A stretch of DNA of 64,000 nucleotides. Origin: Candidatus Nitrosopumilus sp. Its GTDB lineage: Archaea; Thermoproteota; Nitrososphaeria; Nitrososphaerales; Nitrosopumilaceae. This document shows, in pieces, positions 13,987-31,425 of this stretch. The DNA is taken from NCBI GenBank assembly GCA_013215285.1, contig JABSRD010000001.1:1-64000 (forward strand), read 5' to 3'. The notes below the pieces were generated by a model. The model had not been told where the DNA came from, searched no databases, and saw only the letters and a list, made by a program, of their open reading frames with translations. Both the position numbers and the translations under genes were made by a program. Each line of letters opens with the position of its first letter. The stretch's first letter is position 1.

Positions 13987-14061
13987 GGGCCCATAGCTCA
14001 GCATGGATAGAGTGCCGGACTTCTAATCCGATGGTCAAGGGATCGAAGCCCTTTGGGCCCG
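13987..14061 (+). tRNA. tRNA-Arg (anticodon TCT)
   Basis: A complete cloverleaf can be drawn. The acceptor GGGCCCA pairs with TGGGCCC, the discriminator is G, the D stem is GCTC/GAGT, and the T arm is AAGGG-ATCGAAG-CCCTT. The anticodon loop is CTTCTAA with TCT at 14022-14024; the outermost pair of the anticodon stem is a C-A mismatch. CCA is not encoded and there is no intron. Its 3' end (14049-14061) is the attachment core of the downstream mobile element. Confidence 0.93.
14049..14061 (+). repeat. Attachment site at tRNA-Arg 3' end
   Basis: CCCTTTGGGCCCG forms half of the T stem, the 3' acceptor strand and the discriminator base of tRNA-Arg. It is repeated in the same orientation at 31413-31425. 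Confidence 0.8.
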
Positions 14062-14471: not shown

Positions 14472-17400
14472 TCATCGATCTTGTATTGTAAGGTCAACTT
14501 GAGGGAATATGATTGTTGCCTCGTTGTTTCTTACTGTTACCTTTAGCTTGTATGTTTTATCGCCTTGTGTAACATCATCATTTATTTTAGTGGGGATCTT
14601 AACTGATATAGAATCACCCAGGATATACTTGTAAGAGCCATAATACACTTTGTCATAGTATCCTGGCCCACCCCATTTTATTCCGTTATCATAGGAGAAC
14701 AAGTTTGGGTCATTCCATAGTTTAATATTCTCGTTATCTCGTACTTTGTTTCCATCTGAATCAATTACATCAAAGCTTGCCCATTCAGTTTTGGATAAAG
14801 TGTAATCATACTGAAATGATACTACAAATGATTCACCCTCAGTAACTACCAGGGTGCTAGAGTCAACATCAACTGTAATTACTGGATGCCCACGTCCTGA
14901 TTCTTTTATGGTTAGTGGTATTAATTTCGGCTCAAATTGTGGGTTGTTTCGGTCTTCTCGTATTTTTAGATAGTATACCTCATCGCTTTCTGTTTCATCA
15001 TAGTCTACAAAGGTTGGTATGCTCAACCATAACTGATCCCCTGTAATGTACTTGCAGGTTCCATAAAACACCTTATCGTTGTATGAATCACCACCCCAGC
15101 TTACACCATCAAAGGAATATTGGCTAGGATCATTCCATAGTTTGATGTCAGCATTTTTCTTTACTTTGTTTCCATCTGAATCAATCATCTCAAAACATAC
15201 CCATCCTGTTTTTGACAGGTTCTCTGAATATTGGAATTTTACAATAAATGGTTCACCCTCAACTACCTCAAGTATGCTGGAATAATTATCGACTGTTGCA
15301 GAAAGATACCCTGTAGGTTGTGAATCATACACTGTAACATCAAATGGTACAGTTGAGGTTTGATTTTTAGATATAGCTTGAGCTGTGATGGTATAATTTC
15401 CTGCGTTGTAATAATCAGGCGATATTGTTATAGTGTTATTTGTAATTGTGACAAATGACGGTTTTTGTGTTAAAGAATATGTTATTGGGGATTGGTCTGT
15501 TGTTGTTGCAGATACTGTTACGATATGAGTTTGCCCCTCACTTATTGTAATATCATTAATTGATTCGATTATTAGAGATATTGTTGTATCTGTAGGTATG
15601 TATGCATCATAAATTCTTAGATTGTCAATTTCTATATCCTCGCTGTTTGAACTTGATGTTGCAATGAATTTTAATTTGAATTGTGTTGAGGTGTAGTTAG
15701 CAAGACTATACTCTTCAAAATGCCATATACCATCATCTTCGGATTCATCGGCAGTGAAACTGTCAAGTGTGATAAACGTTACACCGCCATCATATGATAC
15801 TGATACCTCTCCCTTTTGGGAACCATACTGTAAATAATGTGAATTGAATCCAAGGTATATGGTATCATACCCAGATACTGTAATTTCAGGAGTGCTTAAT
15901 GTGCTGTTAAAGGTGCCTGTACTAGCAGGATTTCCTTTGTCATTCCACTCATCAGGATCTGCAACTGCAATTATTCCTGTGCCGTTTAGAAATGCTGACC
16001 TTCCCTGAGTGTCAGCTGATTGCCAAAAGTCAGGTGTAACAAATGACCATCCGCGCCATTCTGTTACTCCATTGTTTTTGGTGTGCTCAGAGGATGTTAT
16101 AGACCATCCTGTTGGAGTATCATGTGTCCATCCTATACCGTCAATGCTCTCATCAGTTGCTGATTTCAGTACAGATGATAATCCATCAAAGTTTTCAGAG
16201 AGCAATATGACATCAGGCTGTACAATAGTTATTCCTCCAGGGTCGGCAATGGAACCATTTACAGTATTATCTGCATCAAAGATACTACCATCAATTAAAG
16301 TTAATGTGATTGTGTTATCTCCATCATTACTGCCAAGTATACTAGTTGCATTAATCCACGAATCATTAATTATCTTCCAGTACTGGGAGTTTGCAGATAT
16401 ATTATCAGGATATGTAACTGAAAGTGTTATGGAACTACCGTTGTTTAATCCTGTCACATTCCAAGAGAGTAACCCGTGTGGGAAGGATATAGTGGATGGC
16501 TTGCCAATCATTGGTAGTGTTGATTCATCAACACTTGATGTATAAGATAAAAAACCAGAACTGGCAGAAATTACAATAGTGCCAGAGTTTGTAGATGACT
16601 GGATGGTTTTTGTAATTACATTTGTTGTCACACTTGCAACATTTGATGGAATGCTTGTTCCGATTTGATTAATTGCAGATACTCGATATTGAGATATATC
16701 TTCCGGATTTAGTGTTTTATCACTGTATGTAGTTAGTGCAGATGCAGTATCAGAAACTAGAGTTATGAATCCTGCACCATTTAGGTTTCTTTCAATGAAA
16801 TAACCTGTTATAGAAGAACCACCGTCATTATTTGGTGTACTCCACACAATGTCAATCTGTGTAGGGGATACAGCGTTTGCCACAAGTCCTGTTGGTGCAT
16901 CAGGTATTGCACTTGTGTTTATTGTGAATGTTACAGATTGGGAGGATGACAGTCCTACACCATTTGTTGCAGTGGCAGTTATGGTGTGAGAATCATTAGT
17001 TAATCCTGTAAATGTGTGACTCCATGATGAGGTTCCTGTTGTAATAATTGGCGCTCCCCCATCAAAAGATACCTTAACGTTACCAATTCCTGACTGAGAG
17101 TCTACTGCAGTACCTGTTATTGCTACTGATGATGATATGATAATCTGATTGTTTGTAGGTGCTGTGATGGATATGGATGGTGCAGTTGTATCAGGTGGGT
17201 TTCCCTCCACTATTTTTACTTGGTCAATTTCTGCATTCTCACTGGAGGAATCACTGACAACTGTAAATCTTAGCTTGAATGTGTTTGATGAGAATGATGA
17301 TAAATCATATGATTCTTTTATCCATTGGTTCTCATCAGTGTCACCAAATGATTCACCATACTTTGCAATTTGAATCCACGTGGAGCCGTTGTCTGTTCCC

Positions 17401-17966
17401 TCAACTAGCATATAGTCTTCTGTATCATCAAAGGATGCATCAATGAATCTGTAAAATTCCAGTTTTGGTTGAGAGAACTGTGTCAGGTCAATGTTGTTGA
17501 GTAATGTTAGGACACAGTTCTCATCACAGTCATCAGTGTGTGCAACTACATTTGTGTATCTGGAATGATTTGGTACCTCACTTTCATCTGGGGACTGTAC
17601 AGTCCATGATACGTCACCCGTATTTGACCAGTTTGATAAACTAGGACTTTGTTTTGTTCCAAATTCCTCCTCAAAGGATGAGACTGTCTGCGGACATCCG
17701 TCATTTGTTGCAGGACCAGGTATTGTAGGACAGTTATCTGCAGAGTCATCCACACCATCACCGTCTGTATCTTTTGATGTTATGATTGTGTTTAGAAATA
17801 GTATGTTATCGAGATTCTGGTAATTATTATCATTCCAATCATCAACAAAGTTCAGCATTGTTTTTGCCACGTATGTTTCACCAGTTTCTTTAACATCTGA
17901 GAATGTGTTCCATATGGATGAGCGTCCATTTGAAATGTCATCCCCCTGATTCGTTGGTACTATCAT
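14472..17966 (-). pseudogene. C-terminal part of secreted zinc metalloprotease, shifted frame
   Basis: 1164 residues if started at the out-of-frame ATG 17966, but the real continuation begins at the G-run near 17942-17946, where the upstream protease frame ends. Removing one G joins NESG to DDISNG. Regions in order: a short helical end of the catalytic domain, one TSP3-like calcium unit (DTDGDGVDDSADNCP), a MAM/jelly-roll-like domain, an Ig-like domain, a fibronectin type III domain, a second jelly-roll-like domain, an Ig-like domain, and two about 100-residue repeats containing 'EGE(P/S)F(I/V)V' and 'DSDGNKV'. No C-terminal membrane anchor is seen. These are typical adhesion and substrate-binding modules of large secreted proteases. 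Without a frameshift correction it lacks any signal peptide. Confidence 0.75.
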
Positions 17967-20142
17967 AGATGTCCCATAACGTTGATGCTATTCTACCCTC
18001 TACCTTCTTACCCTCTGCAAATGGCTGGCCACCAATTATGTCACCCCCAATGTTGTATCTTCCCGTCTCAAAGTTGATGGGGTATTGGTATGCAGAAAAT
18101 GATGCAGTAGGTGAATCTGTAATTAATAATGCAACAAAGTGTGCCCACCCTTCAGTCCATGCACATTCAGAATCTGATGTGTCATACACTTTGTGAGATG
18201 CACATGTAGATGTGTCACCTGGAAATGGTGAATTGTTTTTCTGGTATATGGATTTTTGTATGTGGTGTCCGTATTCGTGTAGAATTGTTGCAGGCGAGGA
18301 TTCGTCTGGAGTATAAACGCTTCGTTTAAGATCAATTATTTTATTTAATCGAATGTAATTGTCTTCGTGAACATATTCTGTTTTTACTAGTTCAGGAGAT
18401 CCCCACTTTACTGTAGTTCCTGGAATTTCATAATTTAGTTTAGCATCAAAATAATTCCATCCATCAAGAATAGTACCATATATCCAAGATGCTCTACTAA
18501 AATCATCAACAGTATTTCCATCAGGAGATATGGTTCCATAGTTGAATATTGTTCCTGATAAATTTGGATAGACATTTCCTGTAATCTCAAATAATTTGTT
18601 TTCAAAATTAATAATAGTAAAATTATCATGTTTTAGTTTTGCTTTTACTATAACATCAACTGTATTCTCACCATCAGGATCACTTTGTGGAATTACAAAT
18701 GAAAAGTTTCCCGCACTGCTTGTTTGTGTACATAGATCCTTGTTATCAGAATCTTTGATTGGTGTATCAACACCGGTCCCCACATTACGTTCATAGATAC
18801 ACGCACGAACAGAATCAGCTCCAGTTAACACATTGTCTGCATTCTTGGTCTTTATTGTTCCATAAACAAATACTTGAGATGTGGGTGTCTGACTAAATGC
18901 TTGCGGCAATATCCAGTGGAATGATGGTAAATAACTTTGTGCTGATAATTGTGGTGATTCAAGTTCGGGATGTTTTGCAAACAATTCATCTATAGTGTTT
19001 TGTGATACATTTTCATTTTGAAGAAACTGCCTTGTATTTTCAGTAGATACGCTATTTTTGATAAACTCTGATAAATTTTCTATCAAGTATGAATCTGTTT
19101 CTATAACAGAATCTGATTCATGTGTTGTTTTACTTGGCCAAGAAAAAGATTCTTCTACTGATATTAATTCACTTGATGAAAGTGATCTTGCTAATCGTGA
19201 TGGGGTATTCGTTGTGACTTGATCTTCAGAAAGAAATACAGTATCACCAGAATATGTAAAATATCTTTCTTGATTATGTGCATCGGCCCAAATTACAATT
19301 TTGTTGTAAGGATAATTAATTGATTTATCTATCTGAAGTGTAATGGTTTCAGAATGAATTTTGGTATCATCATAATCAATTTGTTTTTTATATTCAGATA
19401 AAGTGATTCCTGAATAACTATCTCGTTCATCAACAAGATTAAACCCAGATGCAGATACAAGTTGTACTCCTGCCCAAAGACTAAATGTAAGATGTACTCC
19501 TTCAGGTCCTTCATCACCTGGAGATATATCATCAATCTCACCTGTCTCTTTGTCAAACTCTACCATGCTCCAAGTTAATGTCACATCAAATGGTTCTCCC
19601 ATCTTTACCTGTAATGGTGTGTCAAGGGTAGTCTTTGGCCAAGGACTAGTTCCACCTATCGATGAAGAGTTAGACTGAGAATCATCAGATGTTGTGATTA
19701 ATCGTTGATCAGATATTTTCTGTATAAACATTGGATAAGGGATATTTTTTATTAGATCACCGAACTGTACGTTTACAGGAATTATTTCATTTGTATTGTT
19801 TGTTGTAATATTAGAATAAACATCAGTGTTGTCTGTAATTTCTACAGAGTTTGAAATGTCTTCTGTCAGAGTTTTTGGATTTATTATATCATCTTTTTGT
19901 ATAAACTCTGTTGCAATGATGCTCCAATTCATCTTATTTACAGTGGATTCATGTACACAAGCTGGATTATTATTATCTCTAATTACAAGTACACGACTTT
20001 CTCTACAAATTATATCCTCAGGTAAAACACCTGATTCTAGCTGCTTTTTTGGAGAAATATACTCAGCATATGATGGTAAAATTACTCCCATCACTAATAC
20101 TATAAAAAGAGACAATACCAAAACAGAGTTAAGGATATTCAC
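17938..20142 (-). pseudogene. Secreted zinc metalloprotease, N-terminal catalytic part (frameshifted at 3' end)
   Basis: About 734 residues from a GTG at 20142 (a TTG at 20151 is the longer alternative). A signal peptide (VLVLSLFIVLVMGVILPSYA) is followed by a long pro-region and a metalloprotease domain with the zinc motif HEYGHH (HExxH) and, further on, ECAWTEGWAHFVALL, which supplies the third ligand and Met-turn region of this kind of peptidase. The frame stops at WDIYDSTNESGG, in the middle of the fold, at five G (17942-17946). The next frame continues the same domain. A TATA-like box lies 25 bases before the GTG, so the message would be leaderless. It may be a pseudogene, a phase-variable gene or a sequence error. 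Confidence 0.75.
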
Positions 20143-20160
20143 AAGTATCAAATTGAATTA

Positions 20161-20244: not shown

Positions 20245-21003
20245 CTAATCATCAAACATTCTCTCAAAGAGCTGCTTTTCATTATCGTTACATCCAAACT
20301 TTACTGCAATGTATTTTGTGTACTGTACAAATTTCTCCTCATCATAGTTTAACTCCTCAAAGGCTTCTACAAAAATCTCATTTGATACTTTTGTATGTTT
20401 TGTGTGTAGTTCCTCTAGTTCTTTAGAATATTTCTCATGTGTTACATCATTCCAGTCTTCTTTTTTTCCATGTTGTTGTACAAATTGTTTTGATAAATCT
20501 GATTTCTCAAATGGTTGTGTATTATACAACATGCACAATGACAAAAGACACTTTGCAAATGTATCGCCTTGGTGCACATATCTTCGTAACAATGCAAACT
20601 GGAACAAGTCATATTCAAATCCTGATACCATGATACTGCATTGGTTTAATCCAAGCTCATACATGTGATGATATATTGAATCTGCTTGTTGTGTAGTGCA
20701 GTTCTCCAAGTTTATAATTTCAGATTTTATTGACTTTTCAGTTAATCTTGGATTCTTTGCATATTTTAGAGTCAAAAATAAAACAATATGTCTGATTAAT
20801 TTTTCATTGATTTGTATTTCATTTGTCTCTTTTCGTCTTATACCATAACAGTATTCCAAGTTATTCTCTATGATTTGCAGTTCCACATCTAACAGACTAG
20901 CTAACTTTTCAGAGTTATACCCATAATCAAAATGAAGACGATAAACCTGATTTTGTCTTTGTGTAGTGTCATCTGTTTTGGATAATTCTAATGATTTATT
21001 CAT
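20245..21003 (-). CDS. HTH-domain protein, companion of the TIR-HTH protein
   Basis: 252 residues from the ATG at 21003, which overlaps the TGA of the upstream gene (ATGA), so the two are translationally coupled. Near the N-terminus VYRLHFDYGYNSEKLASLLDV is a helix-turn-helix that aligns with VYRLHFELGYSARKISEMMKV in the upstream protein, showing that they are paralogues. The remaining part is helical (for example KSIKSEIINLENCTTQQADSIYHHMYELG, and a matching 'QQAELMIENLNQFGLSQ' segment upstream), with no signal peptide or membrane segment. I do not recognise a catalytic motif. It may be a regulator or the partner of the TIR protein; the pair is inside the mobile element. Confidence 0.65.
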   Translation of the reverse strand: MNKSLELSKTDDTTQRQNQVYRLHFDYGYNSEKLASLLDVELQIIENNLEYCYGIRRKETNEIQINEKLIRHIVLFLTLKYAKNPRLTEKSIKSEIINLENCTTQQADSIYHHMYELGLNQCSIMVSGFEYDLFQFALLRRYVHQGDTFAKCLLSLCMLYNTQPFEKSDLSKQFVQQHGKKEDWNDVTHEKYSKELEELHTKHTKVSNEIFVEAFEELNYDEEKFVQYTKYIAVKFGCNDNEKQLFERMFDD

Positions 21004-21929
21004 GTGAATTCTCGTATCTTTTTTACAATGTTTGATTTTTCTTGAATCATTGATTTTTCTAAAATACAATCTGAATTACATGATACATACTGTACCAATA
21101 GATCATCCAGATATTTTGATTCTTTATCACTTAGATATCCTCTCATTGCACTAAATTCCTTAAAGTTATGATATCCTGATTGTAAAAACTGTGATAAACC
21201 AAACTGATTTAAATTCTCTATCATTAATTCAGCTTGTTGTATTTTACATCTTTGTAGTTTTATGACTAATGTTAATAATTCTGATTCTTTTATAGGATTT
21301 ATGATTTGCAGTGCAGATAATTTTCTAGCTAATTGTGATATCTCATTTTCTTCAACTGTTTGTGGTTCTGTATGATTCTCCAATATCTTGAGATAAAGAC
21401 TGGAAGTTTTGTTGTTAATTTCTGCAATCAGTTTCTCAATGTTTAATTCTAATTCCAAGTCTTGGCAAGATTCTAGTTTTTCTGTTAATCTACTAATTTG
21501 ATTTTCGTATCGTGTTAACTGTTTTATTATACATCCCTTTATCTCATTTTTCTCAAAGGATTTTCCTAGTGTTTCATACCAAAACCGAACATCGGCATTA
21601 ATTGTATTGCGATTTACTTTCATCATCTCTGAGATTTTTCTAGCTGAATATCCAAGCTCAAAGTGTAATCTATACACTTCATCTCTTCTCTTTTCTTTTG
21701 CAATCTTAACTTCTTTTTTAATTGGAATACTTTGGATAGCACTGTTAGTAAGAAATACGATAAAAATATGACAGTCTTTTAGAGATTTATCAATTTGTTC
21801 TTGCCATTTTTCACCTTTTGGAATAAGCTGATCTATGAAAACTTCACAATAAGGTGTGTGTTTATTCAAATAATCTCTCACAAATTTTGCCTCTTCTTTA
21901 TAATCCTCTTGTGAATATGAAATGAATAT
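21000..21929 (-). CDS. TIR-domain/HTH protein, non-canonical or missing start
   Basis: The reading frame carries a TIR domain: KIFISYSQEDYKEE (strand A, 21932 downward), CEVFIDQLIPKGEKWQEQIDKSLKDC, HIFIVFLTNSAIQS and IKKEVKIA, where the Glu in KKEV is at the position of the TIR NADase catalytic Glu. The domain then breaks off and is followed by an HTH (VYRLHFELGYSARKISEMMKVNRNT) and a helical C-terminal region. No ATG, GTG or TTG exists between an upstream in-frame TAG and the first GTG at 21881, which would delete strand A. So it either starts at ATA/ATT near 21929 (used as nominal coordinate) or is 5'-truncated. From GTG 21881 the protein has 293 residues. It overlaps its paralogue by ATGA. 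Confidence 0.6.
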   Translation of the reverse strand: MFISYSQEDYKEEAKFVRDYLNKHTPYCEVFIDQLIPKGEKWQEQIDKSLKDCHIFIVFLTNSAIQSIPIKKEVKIAKEKRRDEVYRLHFELGYSARKISEMMKVNRNTINADVRFWYETLGKSFEKNEIKGCIIKQLTRYENQISRLTEKLESCQDLELELNIEKLIAEINNKTSSLYLKILENHTEPQTVEENEISQLARKLSALQIINPIKESELLTLVIKLQRCKIQQAELMIENLNQFGLSQFLQSGYHNFKEFSAMRGYLSDKESKYLDDLLVQYVSCNSDCILEKSMIQEKSNIVKKIREFT

Positions 21930-21956
21930 TTTAAGAAGTATTAAAATTAATTGGAA

Positions 21957-21980
21957 TGTACAGATAAATCTGTTTGTACA
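21957..21980. promoter_or_regulatory. Inverted repeat upstream of recombinase gene
   Basis: TGTACAGA at 21957 and TCTG(TT)TGTACA ending at 21980 form an imperfect dyad between the TIR-HTH gene and the divergent recombinase gene; a possible operator. Confidence 0.35.
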
Positions 21981-22024
21981 CTAGTATTGAATCTGTTAAG
22001 ATACAATACAATAATGTACCTTTT

Positions 22025-23404
22025 ATGGTTACAATGAATAACAGTTCTGTGAAGATTACTCAGGAAGAAATTATCGAAATCAGTGAGACTCCTTTCCAGT
22101 TATTTCACAGAGGAATTCCAAACCCAAAGACAAATCGTGTTTGGACTGATGTGTTAAAGAAGGTTCTTTGTGAATATCTGGAAACTATTCTGGCAGGGGA
22201 TGTACGACTGATCCAACAACAAAAAGATGAGATGGCAAGAACTGGAAAAAAATTACAATATCGTAAATCATACTATGATGCAGACTTTGAGATTCGTGTT
22301 AACGAACTAGTTAGAAGGGCAAAAGAAGATTCTAAATGGATTGATTCTATTCTGATTACTGTTACATCCAAATTAATGGATCGCAACAAACTAGAAAAAA
22401 ACAATCCTGATTACATTCAGTCATCCATGGTTAAAGGTGCGTTAAAACCACTGAAAAAATTATTCAAAATGACTGATGTTCCTATAGCTTGGGGAAAAAT
22501 TGACAGTTTGATTACAGATGATAATGATGTTAAAGACAAGTCTAGAGGTTATGAGTTAGACGAATTACAAAAAATAGACAAATTTTGTGACCCTATGGAG
22601 CGTGTCATGATAAAACTTGGTGCAAGTTCTGGTGTTCGTTGTGGTGCATATTCTTTGAAATGGGGTCATATCTTCAAAGTCTATCAAGTACAAAAAGACA
22701 AATTCATTTGGGAAACAAATGAGGTCACTGAGACTATCTCTGAGAACTATCCTGTAGTATGTAGAATTATTATAGTCTATGCTGATTCAAATTATGAGTA
22801 TTTTGGACTAGTCACACCTGAATGGTTAGATGATTTAGAAGTTTATCGTGAAACTTGGATTAATGATACTAATCAAATTCCAAAAGATGATGATCCCTTA
22901 TTCAAGAGAGCAGGACCATTTGTCAAAGAATTACATTATGGTGGAATCCGAAAACGAGTTGAAGATGTTATCAATGCCTCCAAAGTTCGAAAACGAATTC
23001 CTAACACCAAACAAAAATACAATGTACCTTTGTTCAATGGACTACGGAGATTTTTCAACAAACAAAATAAAAAAGCATTATCTAAAACCTCAATACTTGC
23101 ATCATTAATAATTAAAGAATATCAGTTAGGACATGGTGGATTGGTAAAACTAGACAGAAGTTATTTCAAAGAACAAGTTGAAGAATTAGTTGAAGAATAT
23201 TTACAAACAATTCCATATGTCACAATCAATAAAGAAGCAATAAAACAAACAGAACTAGATAAAGTCATAAAAGAAAAATCAAAATTAATCAAAGAAAAAG
23301 AAAATGCAGTATCACTATCAAAAAGAATTGATGAACAAGATACCGTAATTGCAGAATTCAAAGAATTGTTACAGGACATACGAAAGAAAAATTTGACTGA
23401 TTAA
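22025..23404 (+). CDS. Tyrosine recombinase (site-specific integrase)
   Basis: 459 residues from the ATG at 22025; an upstream in-frame TTG at 21974 lies in the dyad and is less likely. The C-terminal catalytic domain shows box I in LGASSGVRCGAYSLKW with the first catalytic Arg, box II as FNGLRRFF (Arg kept, the usual His replaced by Asn), a GHGG segment at the usual His/Trp position, and KLDRSYFKE with the nucleophile Tyr. A C-terminal coiled coil (about 40 residues, Lys/Glu-rich) follows. Such enzymes integrate elements at tRNA genes. It sits divergently from the TIR-HTH pair in mid-element, not at the end. Confidence 0.8.
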   Translation: MVTMNNSSVKITQEEIIEISETPFQLFHRGIPNPKTNRVWTDVLKKVLCEYLETILAGDVRLIQQQKDEMARTGKKLQYRKSYYDADFEIRVNELVRRAKEDSKWIDSILITVTSKLMDRNKLEKNNPDYIQSSMVKGALKPLKKLFKMTDVPIAWGKIDSLITDDNDVKDKSRGYELDELQKIDKFCDPMERVMIKLGASSGVRCGAYSLKWGHIFKVYQVQKDKFIWETNEVTETISENYPVVCRIIIVYADSNYEYFGLVTPEWLDDLEVYRETWINDTNQIPKDDDPLFKRAGPFVKELHYGGIRKRVEDVINASKVRKRIPNTKQKYNVPLFNGLRRFFNKQNKKALSKTSILASLIIKEYQLGHGGLVKLDRSYFKEQVEELVEEYLQTIPYVTINKEAIKQTELDKVIKEKSKLIKEKENAVSLSKRIDEQDTVIAEFKELLQDIRKKNLTD

Positions 23405-25183: not shown

Positions 25184-25333
25184 TCATTGAGCAATCATTC
25201 TTTGCTTGCTTAGACCTCCAAAATAATCAAAGTGTTCTCTTTTTAGATGTGCATAAAACCATCTCTCAAGAACATAGCCTTTTTTGATTCGTCTTCCACA
25301 AAAAGGACAGAAATATTTTTTTTGACGTTTCAT
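25184..25333 (-). CDS. Small zinc-finger protein downstream of rep
   Basis: 49 residues, start ATG 25333 overlapping the TGA of the Rep gene (ATGA). It begins MKRQKKYFCPFCGRRIKKGYV and has HLKREH about 20 residues later, giving a C2H2 zinc-finger pattern. Probably a DNA-binding accessory of the replication gene, by position only. Confidence 0.6.
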   Translation of the reverse strand: MKRQKKYFCPFCGRRIKKGYVLERWFYAHLKREHFDYFGGLSKQRMIAQ

Positions 25334-26886
25334 GAGTAATCCATCCATGATTTTATTTTCTGACTTGATGTAATTCTGTTATAGATTAGCGGATTATTTT
25401 CTATTCTTTCTAACTCACGTTGTTTTTTGGTTTTATGATGGATTGTATGATATGACTCATCATAGAACTCCATCTTTTCACCACTAATCATATCAATCTC
25501 TAAGAGCAGTCCTTCTGCAAACATGCAACCCTCACTCATGGCATCATCATCAGGCAGGAATCCTTGCCAATTGTGATAATCTTTGTTGATTTTGGCTGGA
25601 ACCAACGTTTCCCCACACAATTTGCATGATTTACTTTTCTCTATGTCTTCATCCTCTAAGATGTAATTGTCATCTCTGAATTTTTTAAGATATGAATTTT
25701 TGATTTTTCTGTATGATAATTCCCCAAACCAGTGAACAGAATGTTTGTGATTCTTTATGGCACAGTGGGATAACAAATAAAACGCAACAGAAAATACATT
25801 TTTTCTTTCATGTAAAGTGCCTTTGATTGGCTTGTGGTATACTACATTAATTCCAAACTTTTTGTAAATATCTTCTTTTGCAGTGGGCGATATCCAACCA
25901 AATGCAATGAGGTGATTGTGAATTGAGACATATGGTTTTGTCTTTCCAGTTTCAAATCTCCAATAGTGTGTAATTGAGACACCGCCTGTGATTCCTGCAA
26001 TCCTTCTCATCTGTTTTAGAATTCGTTGTTGTTTTGATTTGGAGTAACTCCAGAATATATCATCAGCAGGGATAGACTCTACAACGTGTGAAGGCTTTGA
26101 GTTTCTTTTCTGGTTTGTGGTTTTTTGTATCATTAGTCGATACAACCAAATTCTTCTCTCAATCTTTTTGGCGATTCGCATTCCTGCCTTTTGCACACAG
26201 ACAGGACATGACAATCTATTACAACTGTGAACTATTCTTTTTCCATAGTTATAATCCCTACATTTTGAGAATCTCCACTTGCCACAAGTTTCGTATTGGT
26301 CTGCACTTCCAGGTAACGTGTACCCCTGAAAGTCTAGCATTAATTTCCACTCAGAACGTTTTGCTAATTCGTAAATGTGTTCAGTGTTTGTTGGATTGAT
26401 TTTCTCTAGATTGGTTTGTTGTGTTTTCTCACTAATGATTTTTGGAATTTCTTGTTTGTCCTGGACTAATTTTTCTAAGAATTCTTTTTCTTTTGTTTCC
26501 CATTCTTCCTGGCTGAAAATCTCACCATTGCTAAAGACTTTGTATGAATTTCTTTTTTGTTGTTCTATAATGGATGCAGCAATTTTATGATTTAACGTTA
26601 CAGAGATTGGAATTCCTGCATAATCATCTGAATCAGAGTAAAACTTGAATCTGGCCAACTTTTTAGATTCATGCCATTTCAGGCCATTTTCATGCAATTT
26701 TATGCCTAGTTGACGTTTTTGAGTCAGCTGCAGCACTTGCTCTAGTGTCTCACACTGCGATAATTCCAGATCAAAGAATGTCTTGTTTCTTAATCTGAGA
26801 ATGTATGCTCTTTTCTCTGCATCTTTAATTGATTCCTCTAGTGGGTTACTTTTCGGAATGGCAGGAAACCATTGTTGATAAAACAT
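25330..26886 (-). CDS. rep: HUH-type replication initiation-like protein
   Basis: 518 residues. A zinc-binding stretch CGKWRFSKC...HSCNRLSCPVC (Cys201 to Cys230) precedes a basic helix; further on SIHNHLIAFG (His323, His325) resembles the HUH metal motif, and VFSVAFYLLSHC (Tyr370) may carry the nicking Tyr. This order is that of rolling-circle Rep proteins of archaeal plasmids and viruses. A second CxxC (CKLCGETL) lies near residue 425. The middle residue of HUH is Asn rather than hydrophobic, and the usual YxxK is not exact, so the call is probable rather than certain. The first 20 residues overlap the divergent frame at 26829. Confidence 0.62.
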   Translation of the reverse strand: MFYQQWFPAIPKSNPLEESIKDAEKRAYILRLRNKTFFDLELSQCETLEQVLQLTQKRQLGIKLHENGLKWHESKKLARFKFYSDSDDYAGIPISVTLNHKIAASIIEQQKRNSYKVFSNGEIFSQEEWETKEKEFLEKLVQDKQEIPKIISEKTQQTNLEKINPTNTEHIYELAKRSEWKLMLDFQGYTLPGSADQYETCGKWRFSKCRDYNYGKRIVHSCNRLSCPVCVQKAGMRIAKKIERRIWLYRLMIQKTTNQKRNSKPSHVVESIPADDIFWSYSKSKQQRILKQMRRIAGITGGVSITHYWRFETGKTKPYVSIHNHLIAFGWISPTAKEDIYKKFGINVVYHKPIKGTLHERKNVFSVAFYLLSHCAIKNHKHSVHWFGELSYRKIKNSYLKKFRDDNYILEDEDIEKSKSCKLCGETLVPAKINKDYHNWQGFLPDDDAMSEGCMFAEGLLLEIDMISGEKMEFYDESYHTIHHKTKKQRELERIENNPLIYNRITSSQKIKSWMDYS

Positions 26887-29958: not shown

Positions 29959-30621
29959 ATGATTGATTTTAACTGGATAGTATACCAACAGAATATCTCA
30001 TTTTTGGGAATGCAGGGTTCAGGTAAAATAACTCTTGCCAAAAAAATTCTTGATACAATTCCAGGTGTTCCAAGACTAATCATATCTCCACAAAAACCAC
30101 TAGAAAACTATGGTGGGTATGGTACACCAATTGATAAAATTTCTGACATCCAAAGCGGTGCAATGATTTGGACTGGGGATTTTTCTCAAGGTACCTTTGA
30201 GAGAATTTGTAGTACTTTGATGGCTAGATGTTCTGATATGGTTCTACTAGTGGACGATGTTCATGAATTTTGTAGTAAACAAAAGATGCCTAGTAACTTT
30301 AACACTTTGATACAATCTGGCAGAAATAGGGGAATCTGTGGAATGTATCTCTCACCATCTGCCAATTTGGTGAACAACTACATTTTGCAATCATGCCAGC
30401 ATATCTTTGCATTTAAAATGAAATTACATTCCCAAATAGAATGGCTTGAAAAAAATTACTTTGGAAATGATGCAGAGATTCTAATTGCTAGTGATTTGAG
30501 GAATCCAAAAAAGACCATCCATCTGGACTATGATTGTGACGTACTGCCAAAGTACTCATTTCTGTACAGAGGAGATGAGGATTCTCAGAATCAGTTGTAT
30601 GTCGGAGATGATGATGATTAA
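29959..30621 (+). CDS. P-loop ATPase, FtsK/HerA-like (packaging/DNA-translocase type)
   Basis: 220 residues. Walker A is GMQGSGKIT at about residue 15 (the residue after Lys is Ile, Thr follows), Walker B is MVLLVDDVHEF, and SGRNRGICGMYLSPSANLVNNYILQSCQHIFAFKM resembles the sensor and C-terminal strands of compact HerA/FtsK ATPases, such as A32-like packaging ATPases of archaeal viruses and related plasmid proteins. Presumed role: moving element DNA. The gene stands in the operon 28353-30833 and its stop overlaps the next start by one base. No capsid gene accompanies it, so virus packaging is not proved. Confidence 0.65.
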   Translation: MIDFNWIVYQQNISFLGMQGSGKITLAKKILDTIPGVPRLIISPQKPLENYGGYGTPIDKISDIQSGAMIWTGDFSQGTFERICSTLMARCSDMVLLVDDVHEFCSKQKMPSNFNTLIQSGRNRGICGMYLSPSANLVNNYILQSCQHIFAFKMKLHSQIEWLEKNYFGNDAEILIASDLRNPKKTIHLDYDCDVLPKYSFLYRGDEDSQNQLYVGDDDD

Positions 30622-31412: not shown

Positions 31413-31425
31413 CCCTTTGGGCCCG
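31413..31425 (+). repeat. Far attachment site of the element
   Basis: CCCTTTGGGCCCG, identical and in the same orientation as the tRNA-Arg 3' end at 14049-14061. The bases before it (ATGGGA) do not fold into a tRNA, so this is a free att copy and not a second tRNA. Confidence 0.8.

What the first reader, a model, noticed from the sequence alone, without database searches (positions are those of the whole stretch)
20245..21956. TIR-HTH protein coupled to a paralogous HTH protein: possible defence or regulatory pair
The first protein has a TIR start, strand and acid pattern with the Glu of TIR NADases kept, but the domain stops after about 80 residues and changes into an HTH; the second protein, overlapped by ATGA, has the same HTH without TIR. 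TIR proteins are common in anti-phage systems, and this pair is carried by a mobile element next to its recombinase. This TIR-to-HTH fusion with a TIR-less partner is not a system I recognise.
Basis: partly seen in the sequence, partly recalled or inferred. Interest (0 to 1): 0.7.

Follow-up and report, generated by a model that had tools for sequence, protein, structure and literature searches.

The report
Truncated TIR fused to archaeal regulator
In a mobile element of a marine ammonia-oxidising archaeon, the front two-thirds of an immune-type (TIR) domain has been joined to a DNA-binding regulator of a family otherwise free of TIR; it is probably a one-off regulator chimera rather than a new antiviral system.

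Summary
P1 (21003–21941, minus strand) has a real TIR start: Pfam TIR_2, E=2e-13, profile positions 1–79 of 122. Its first 84 residues fold as TIR at pLDDT 92–95, and Glu77 is kept. It runs without a linker into an HTH, a coiled coil and a C-terminal domain. P2 (20245–21003) follows with an ATGA overlap; it shares the C-terminal domain but has a degenerate HTH and no coiled coil. Both lie in a 17.36-kb element in tRNA-Arg (13-bp att repeats, empty site in relatives), divergent from its tyrosine recombinase.

The defence interpretation is weak. The HTH family is a Nitrososphaerota regulator family, and no other member found carries TIR. The TIR lacks βD–αE, and no ATG/GTG/TTG precedes its first strand. 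Of 58 HTH genes, 46 carry an upstream AACTATGC direct repeat, a candidate operator, which P1 lacks. Coupled HTH + C-domain gene pairs without TIR exist in another Nitrosopumilus genome, so the pairing is not TIR-specific. No Thoeris, SPARTA or other known TIR system was recognised here.

Best reading: an element-borne regulator pair whose first gene acquired a truncated, probably non-catalytic TIR by chimeric fusion. The fusion was found once; decay is the main rival.

The parts
21690..21941 (-). Truncated TIR module of P1 (residues 1-84 counted from an ATA at 21941); betaA-alphaA-betaB-alphaB-betaC-alphaC; Glu77 kept; betaD to alphaE absent
   Evidence: Pfam TIR_2 E=2e-13, profile 1-79/122; AF2 pLDDT 92-95; Foldseek TIR hits; invariants F6, D13, E77
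21003..21689 (-). HTH (NRNTIN recognition helix intact), coiled coil and C-terminal domain of P1; stop codon at 21000-21002
   Evidence: Family matches in 38 of 200 Nitrosopumilaceae genomes, the best ones starting at or near residue 78; AF2 mostly above pLDDT 90 from residue 80
20245..21003 (-). P2, 252 aa, ATG in ATGA overlap with P1; degenerate HTH, no coiled coil, C-terminal domain related to the long family members
21957..21980 (.). TGTACA-N12-TGTACA repeat between the divergent P1 and integrase genes; candidate operator
   Evidence: Only pair of TGTACA less than 40 bp apart in the 64-kb window (29 copies in all)
21974..23404 (+). Tyrosine recombinase (integrase) of the element; true start probably an internal ATG
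   Evidence: R222, R358/R359, H387 and Y397 invariant among 5 relatives; relatives in 29 of 101 family genomes, own included
14049..14061 (+). attL: CCCTTTGGGCCCG at the 3' end of tRNA-Arg(TCT)
31413..31425 (+). attR: CCCTTTGGGCCCG followed by CTTAACAAAATTATT, the sequence that directly follows the intact tRNA in two relatives (empty site)

Best explanation
P1/P2 is a pair of DNA-binding-regulator-type proteins carried by a 17.4-kb integrated element of a Nitrosopumilus-type archaeon. Shown: P1 is a member of a Nitrososphaerota HTH-coiled-coil-C-domain family in which the usual N-terminal arm (KKGGPYTKxEQ) and the usual upstream direct repeat are replaced by the first ~84 residues of a TIR domain. 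Shown: P2 is a second, divergent relative whose recognition helix and coiled coil are lost while the C-domain is kept. Inferred: P1 binds DNA as an oligomer through its intact HTH and coiled coil; P2, made by coupled translation, joins it through the C-domain as a non-DNA-binding subunit; the pair acts at the shared P1/integrase promoter region (TGTACA-N12-TGTACA). Inferred: the TIR remnant is not a competent NADase, because strands D and E and helices D and E are missing; it is either a self-association module, made only if a non-standard start such as the ATA at 21941 is used, or it is largely untranslated, with synthesis starting at GTG 21881.
For: Every homolog found with the HTH in 200 family genomes, 400 class genomes and 33 named genome contigs lacks TIR. 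Of 44 TIR_2 places in 250 family genomes, all but the window's (ends at 79) and one weak one (ends at 77) run to profile position 88 or beyond. P1 keeps the conserved HTH and coiled-coil residues of alignment A4 (R85, V89, A100, I103, T113, R151, E169 and the NRNTIN motif). P2 loses NRNTIN and the coiled coil. Coupled HTH-stop/C-domain-start pairs (TTGA overlap) occur without TIR in L203/L069 and L208, two loci of one Nitrosopumilus genome. Most family genes have a same-strand AACTATGC direct repeat upstream (46 of 58 with at most 2 mismatches; 0-3 copies per whole genome), as expected for autoregulators. The HTH superposes on the DeoR DNA-binding domain (rmsd 1.3 A over 46 columns, probability 0.99, E=1.2, so a fold hint only).
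Against: No protein of this family sits beside the related integrases looked at, so control of the integrase is not a conserved arrangement. The proposed operator is one repeat in one genome. The TIR segment keeps conserved TIR residues including the catalytic-type Glu and a clean frame, which is more than a dead remnant needs. P1 has no close relative, so selection on the fusion cannot be measured.
Confidence: 0.5

Rival explanations
1. Chimeric gene on the way to decay: illegitimate recombination in the element joined a TIR gene fragment to an HTH gene, removed the HTH gene's own promoter and start, and neither P1's TIR part nor P2 has a function now.
For: No ATG/GTG/TTG before the first TIR strand; TIR lacks its last third; P2 has lost recognition helix and coiled coil; family operator repeat absent; found in one genome only; related genes elsewhere carry stops (G146:C68, G153:C9).
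Against: No internal stop or frameshift in 313 + 252 codons; coding-like codon use in the right frame in both parts; P1's HTH residues intact; exact ATGA coupling kept.
Confidence: 0.3
2. Two-protein anti-virus system: the HTH/coiled-coil/C-domain part senses or binds invader DNA or protein, gathers TIR domains, and the TIR degrades NAD+ to stop growth; P2 is the partner or restraint.
For: TIR fold and conserved Glu77; mobile element location; a sister locus with a 41% identical integrase (L136) carries SIR2, ThsB-type TIR, SLATT and TIR-WYL genes.
Against: Missing betaD to alphaE; no standard start codon; no such fusion elsewhere; TIR-less pairs of the same family exist; no PADLOC or NCBIfam model of a known system reached in full.
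Confidence: 0.12
3. The TIR remnant works as a scaffold: betaA to alphaC self-associates and raises the cooperativity of a DNA-bound regulator, without catalysis. This is a sharper form of the best explanation.
For: The retained part is the well-folded N-terminal portion with conserved residues; alphaC appears to run straight into HTH helix 1, so the join is structurally tidy.
Against: The D/E side of the domain is missing; no homolog shows it; start codon problem.
Confidence: 0.2

Closest known systems
TIR_2 domain proteins of Nitrososphaeria (for example the TIR of L138, about 40% identical over residues 1-86, and L139, L140)
   Same: Start motif, betaA to alphaC, invariant Asp13 and Glu77
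   Different: Those TIRs continue beyond alphaC and are fused to NACHT/pentapeptide repeats (L138) or other tails; none is fused to an HTH
Nitrososphaerota HTH-coiled-coil(-C-domain) family (L034, L036, L061, L039 and others; no Pfam or NCBIfam model matched above cut-off)
   Same: HTH with NRNTIN, coiled coil, C-terminal domain; two members are followed by a coupled C-domain gene
   Different: N-terminal arm and AACTATGC repeat replaced by TIR in P1; P2 lacks the recognition helix and coiled coil
Thoeris (ThsB TIR with ThsA)
   Same: TIR fold; weak profile matches (ThsB 7.9e-6; type III ThcB4 5.4e-9, 35 bits against a cut-off of 220)
   Different: No ThsA-type partner seen next to P1; truncated TIR
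SPARTA (TIR-APAZ with short pAgo)
   Same: Best structural neighbours of the TIR part; TIR joined to a nucleic-acid-linked module
   Different: No APAZ and no Argonaute recognised; HTH in place of APAZ
Cryptic integrated elements of Thaumarchaeota (PMC6563490)
   Same: Size about 17 kb, tRNA integration, tyrosine recombinase, probable rolling-circle Rep (25330-26886)
   Different: A text search of that paper found no TIR-domain protein (its 'TIR' means terminal inverted repeats)

Membership tests
TIR domain (PF13676, TIR_2) | Profile score above curated cut-off | tested here: met
   51.3 bits against 28
TIR domain (PF13676, TIR_2) | Complete five-stranded domain | tested here: not met
   Profile 1-79/122 only; model has betaA to alphaC, then HTH
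TIR NADase | Conserved Glu in alphaC | tested here: met
   E77 invariant in 20 sequences; its catalytic role is from established knowledge of TIR enzymes
TIR NADase | NAD+ cleavage | not testable with these tools
   Needs a biochemical assay
Thoeris | ThsA-type effector gene next to the TIR gene | tested here: not met
   Neighbours are P2, a tyrosine recombinase and large exported-type proteins; PADLOC on six element proteins gives no ThsA; Pfam gives no SIR2/SLOG on the ten proteins scanned
SPARTA | APAZ domain and short Argonaute | tested here: not met
   None in Pfam or PADLOC scans of P1, P2 and neighbours
Nitrososphaerota HTH-coiled-coil family | HTH with NRNTIN and conserved coiled-coil residues | tested here: met
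   P1; P2 fails this
Nitrososphaerota HTH-coiled-coil family | Upstream AACTATGC direct repeat | tested here: not met
   0 matches in the window with 2 mismatches; 46 of 58 family genes have it
Thaumarchaeal integrated element | Integrase, att repeat in tRNA, empty site in relatives | tested here: met

The most novel reading that the evidence does not exclude
A functional half-TIR that lets a DNA-bound archaeal regulator assemble or respond to NAD-type ligands, tempered by a non-DNA-binding partner: a TIR used in gene control of a mobile element rather than in cell killing.
Probability: 0.1. Interest if true: 0.65.

Novelty: new variant of a known kind. Interest (0 to 1): 0.33.

Why it matters
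TIR domains are known mostly as NAD-consuming or signalling modules of immunity. A TIR piece grafted onto a regulator of a mobile element would show how immune domains are recycled into gene control in ammonia-oxidising archaea. Even if it is a dead end, the work exposes a sizeable, unnamed Nitrososphaerota regulator family with a candidate operator, which can be tested directly.

Tried and rejected
Searches for a second TIR-HTH fusion found none: IMG/VR with P1 and with the HTH family, PLSDB plasmids, phages (weak hits only). phrog_13899 seemed to span TIR and HTH; the best phage hit, a protein of Escherichia phage P2_AC1, has an ordinary TIR over residues 3-113 and no HTH match, so that overlap is probably a TIR C-terminus aligned to the HTH by chance. 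A mixed TIR + HTH alignment misaligned the TIRs, so the two halves were modelled with separate alignments; neither model shows the whole chain at high confidence. The idea that the HTH family always sits beside an integrase was rejected.

Full report
Setting. The window is part of a 1.66-Mb, 99% complete genome; named relatives of its HTH family are Nitrosopumilus and other Nitrosopumilales, so the host is taken to be a Nitrosopumilus-type ammonia-oxidising archaeon. The pair lies inside a 17.36-kb element. A 13-bp repeat, CCCTTTGGGCCCG, marks the 3' end of tRNA-Arg (14049-14061) and recurs at 31413-31425. In relatives L227 and L228 the intact tRNA is followed directly by CTTAACAAAATTATT, which is the sequence to the right of attR in the window; in L227-L229, L231 and L232 the two host genes that flank the element here lie close together. 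The element encodes a tyrosine recombinase (R222, R358/R359, H387, Y397 invariant among five relatives), a protein with HUH-type and Cys motifs of rolling-circle Reps (25330-26886; motif by inspection; no convincing Pfam match) and a packaging-type ATPase (29959-30621; terminase PHROG, E=1e-14). It fits the 'cryptic integrated elements' of Thaumarchaeota (PMC6563490).

P1. Residues 1-84 are a real TIR start. The profile match ends at position 79 of 122, so betaD, alphaD, betaE and alphaE are missing; HTH helix 1 begins where alphaC ends. The frame has coding composition in both parts. There is no ATG, GTG or TTG upstream of the first strand within the frame. An ATA at 21941 would give MLLKIFISYS; a TTTATC about 25 bp upstream could serve as its TATA element (inference). 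From residue about 80 onward P1 belongs to a Nitrososphaerota family with HTH, coiled coil and, in the long form, a C-terminal domain. P1 keeps the conserved HTH and coiled-coil positions.

P2. P2 starts in an ATGA overlap. It is closest to the long family members L061, L035, L034 and L036 and is not a fresh duplicate of P1. Its HTH has lost NRNTIN and the coiled coil is deleted, so it probably does not bind the family's DNA site (inference).

How widespread. The TIR part used alone finds only three weak TIRs in other genomes among 250 of the family; TIR_2 as a profile finds 44 places in 39 of them. Among the frames fetched, only P1 matches both the P1 TIR and the HTH family. P1 matches occur in 38 of 200 family genomes, all but the window's by the HTH side. 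In the 400-genome class search 48 genomes match P1; five of these lie outside the family, three with TIR-only matches and two with HTH matches. The 33 named genome contigs are all Nitrososphaerota. No viral contig was confirmed. Two loci of one Nitrosopumilus genome carry a TIR-less coupled pair, an HTH-coiled-coil gene followed through a TTGA overlap by a C-domain gene (L203, which is also L069, and L208). Coupling of two family proteins is therefore not unique to this locus; the TIR is.

Operators. Of 58 distinct family genes (the window's two included), 46 have AACTANGC-NN-AACTANGC with at most two mismatches on the same strand upstream, 36 without a mismatch, while the 15 whole genomes counted hold 0 to 3 copies each and the reversed control none. 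This is a candidate autoregulatory site. The window has none. Between P1 and the integrase lies TGTACA-N12-TGTACA, the only TGTACA pair closer than 40 bp in the window.

Mechanism. Shown: fold and truncation of the TIR, membership of P1's remainder in the HTH family, degeneration of P2's HTH, the overlap, the element context. Inferred: DNA binding by a P1 oligomer, mixed oligomers with P2 through the C-domain, action on the divergent promoter region, and loss of NADase function. The defence reading keeps some life from the conserved Glu77 and from a sister locus (L136) that carries SIR2, ThsB-type TIR, SLATT and TIR-WYL genes near a related integrase, but nothing else at this locus supports it.

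Verdict. The most economical account is a one-off chimera in a regulator pair; decay is the main rival. The confidences given to the best explanation and to the scaffold rival overlap, since the second is a sharper form of the first.

Noticed in passing
L003, L007, L011, L015, L030, L066 and others (46 of 58 HTH-family genes): A same-strand direct repeat AACTATGC-NN-AACTATGC, often followed by a T run, lies upstream of most members of this Nitrososphaerota HTH family; candidate operator, with a few more copies elsewhere in each genome.
   Followed up: partly
L136: 4688-10325 and 12404-13702: A relative's locus with a 41% identical integrase carries SIR2, two ThsB-type TIRs (one checked by Pfam), a SLATT protein and a TIR-WYL fusion: a possible defence cargo.
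   Followed up: partly
L203: 3890-4911 and L208: 3941-4974: HTH-coiled-coil gene whose TGA overlaps the TTG of a C-domain-only gene: a TIR-less coupled pair of the same family, twice in one genome.
   Followed up: yes
L138: 3487-8865: A SLOG/SLATT-like gene (by eye) followed by a TIR-NACHT-pentapeptide protein in a Nitrososphaeria genome of another family; a similar first gene precedes a TIR gene in L140.
   Followed up: no
window 14472-20151: Two large exported-type proteins with a short overlap (HEYGHH metalloprotease-like motif; Ig, fn3 and TSP_3 repeats) inside the element; possibly one gene split by a frameshift.
   Followed up: no
window 25330-26886: Probable rolling-circle Rep (SIHNHL HUH-type motif, Cys pairs) with no convincing Pfam match.
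   Followed up: partly
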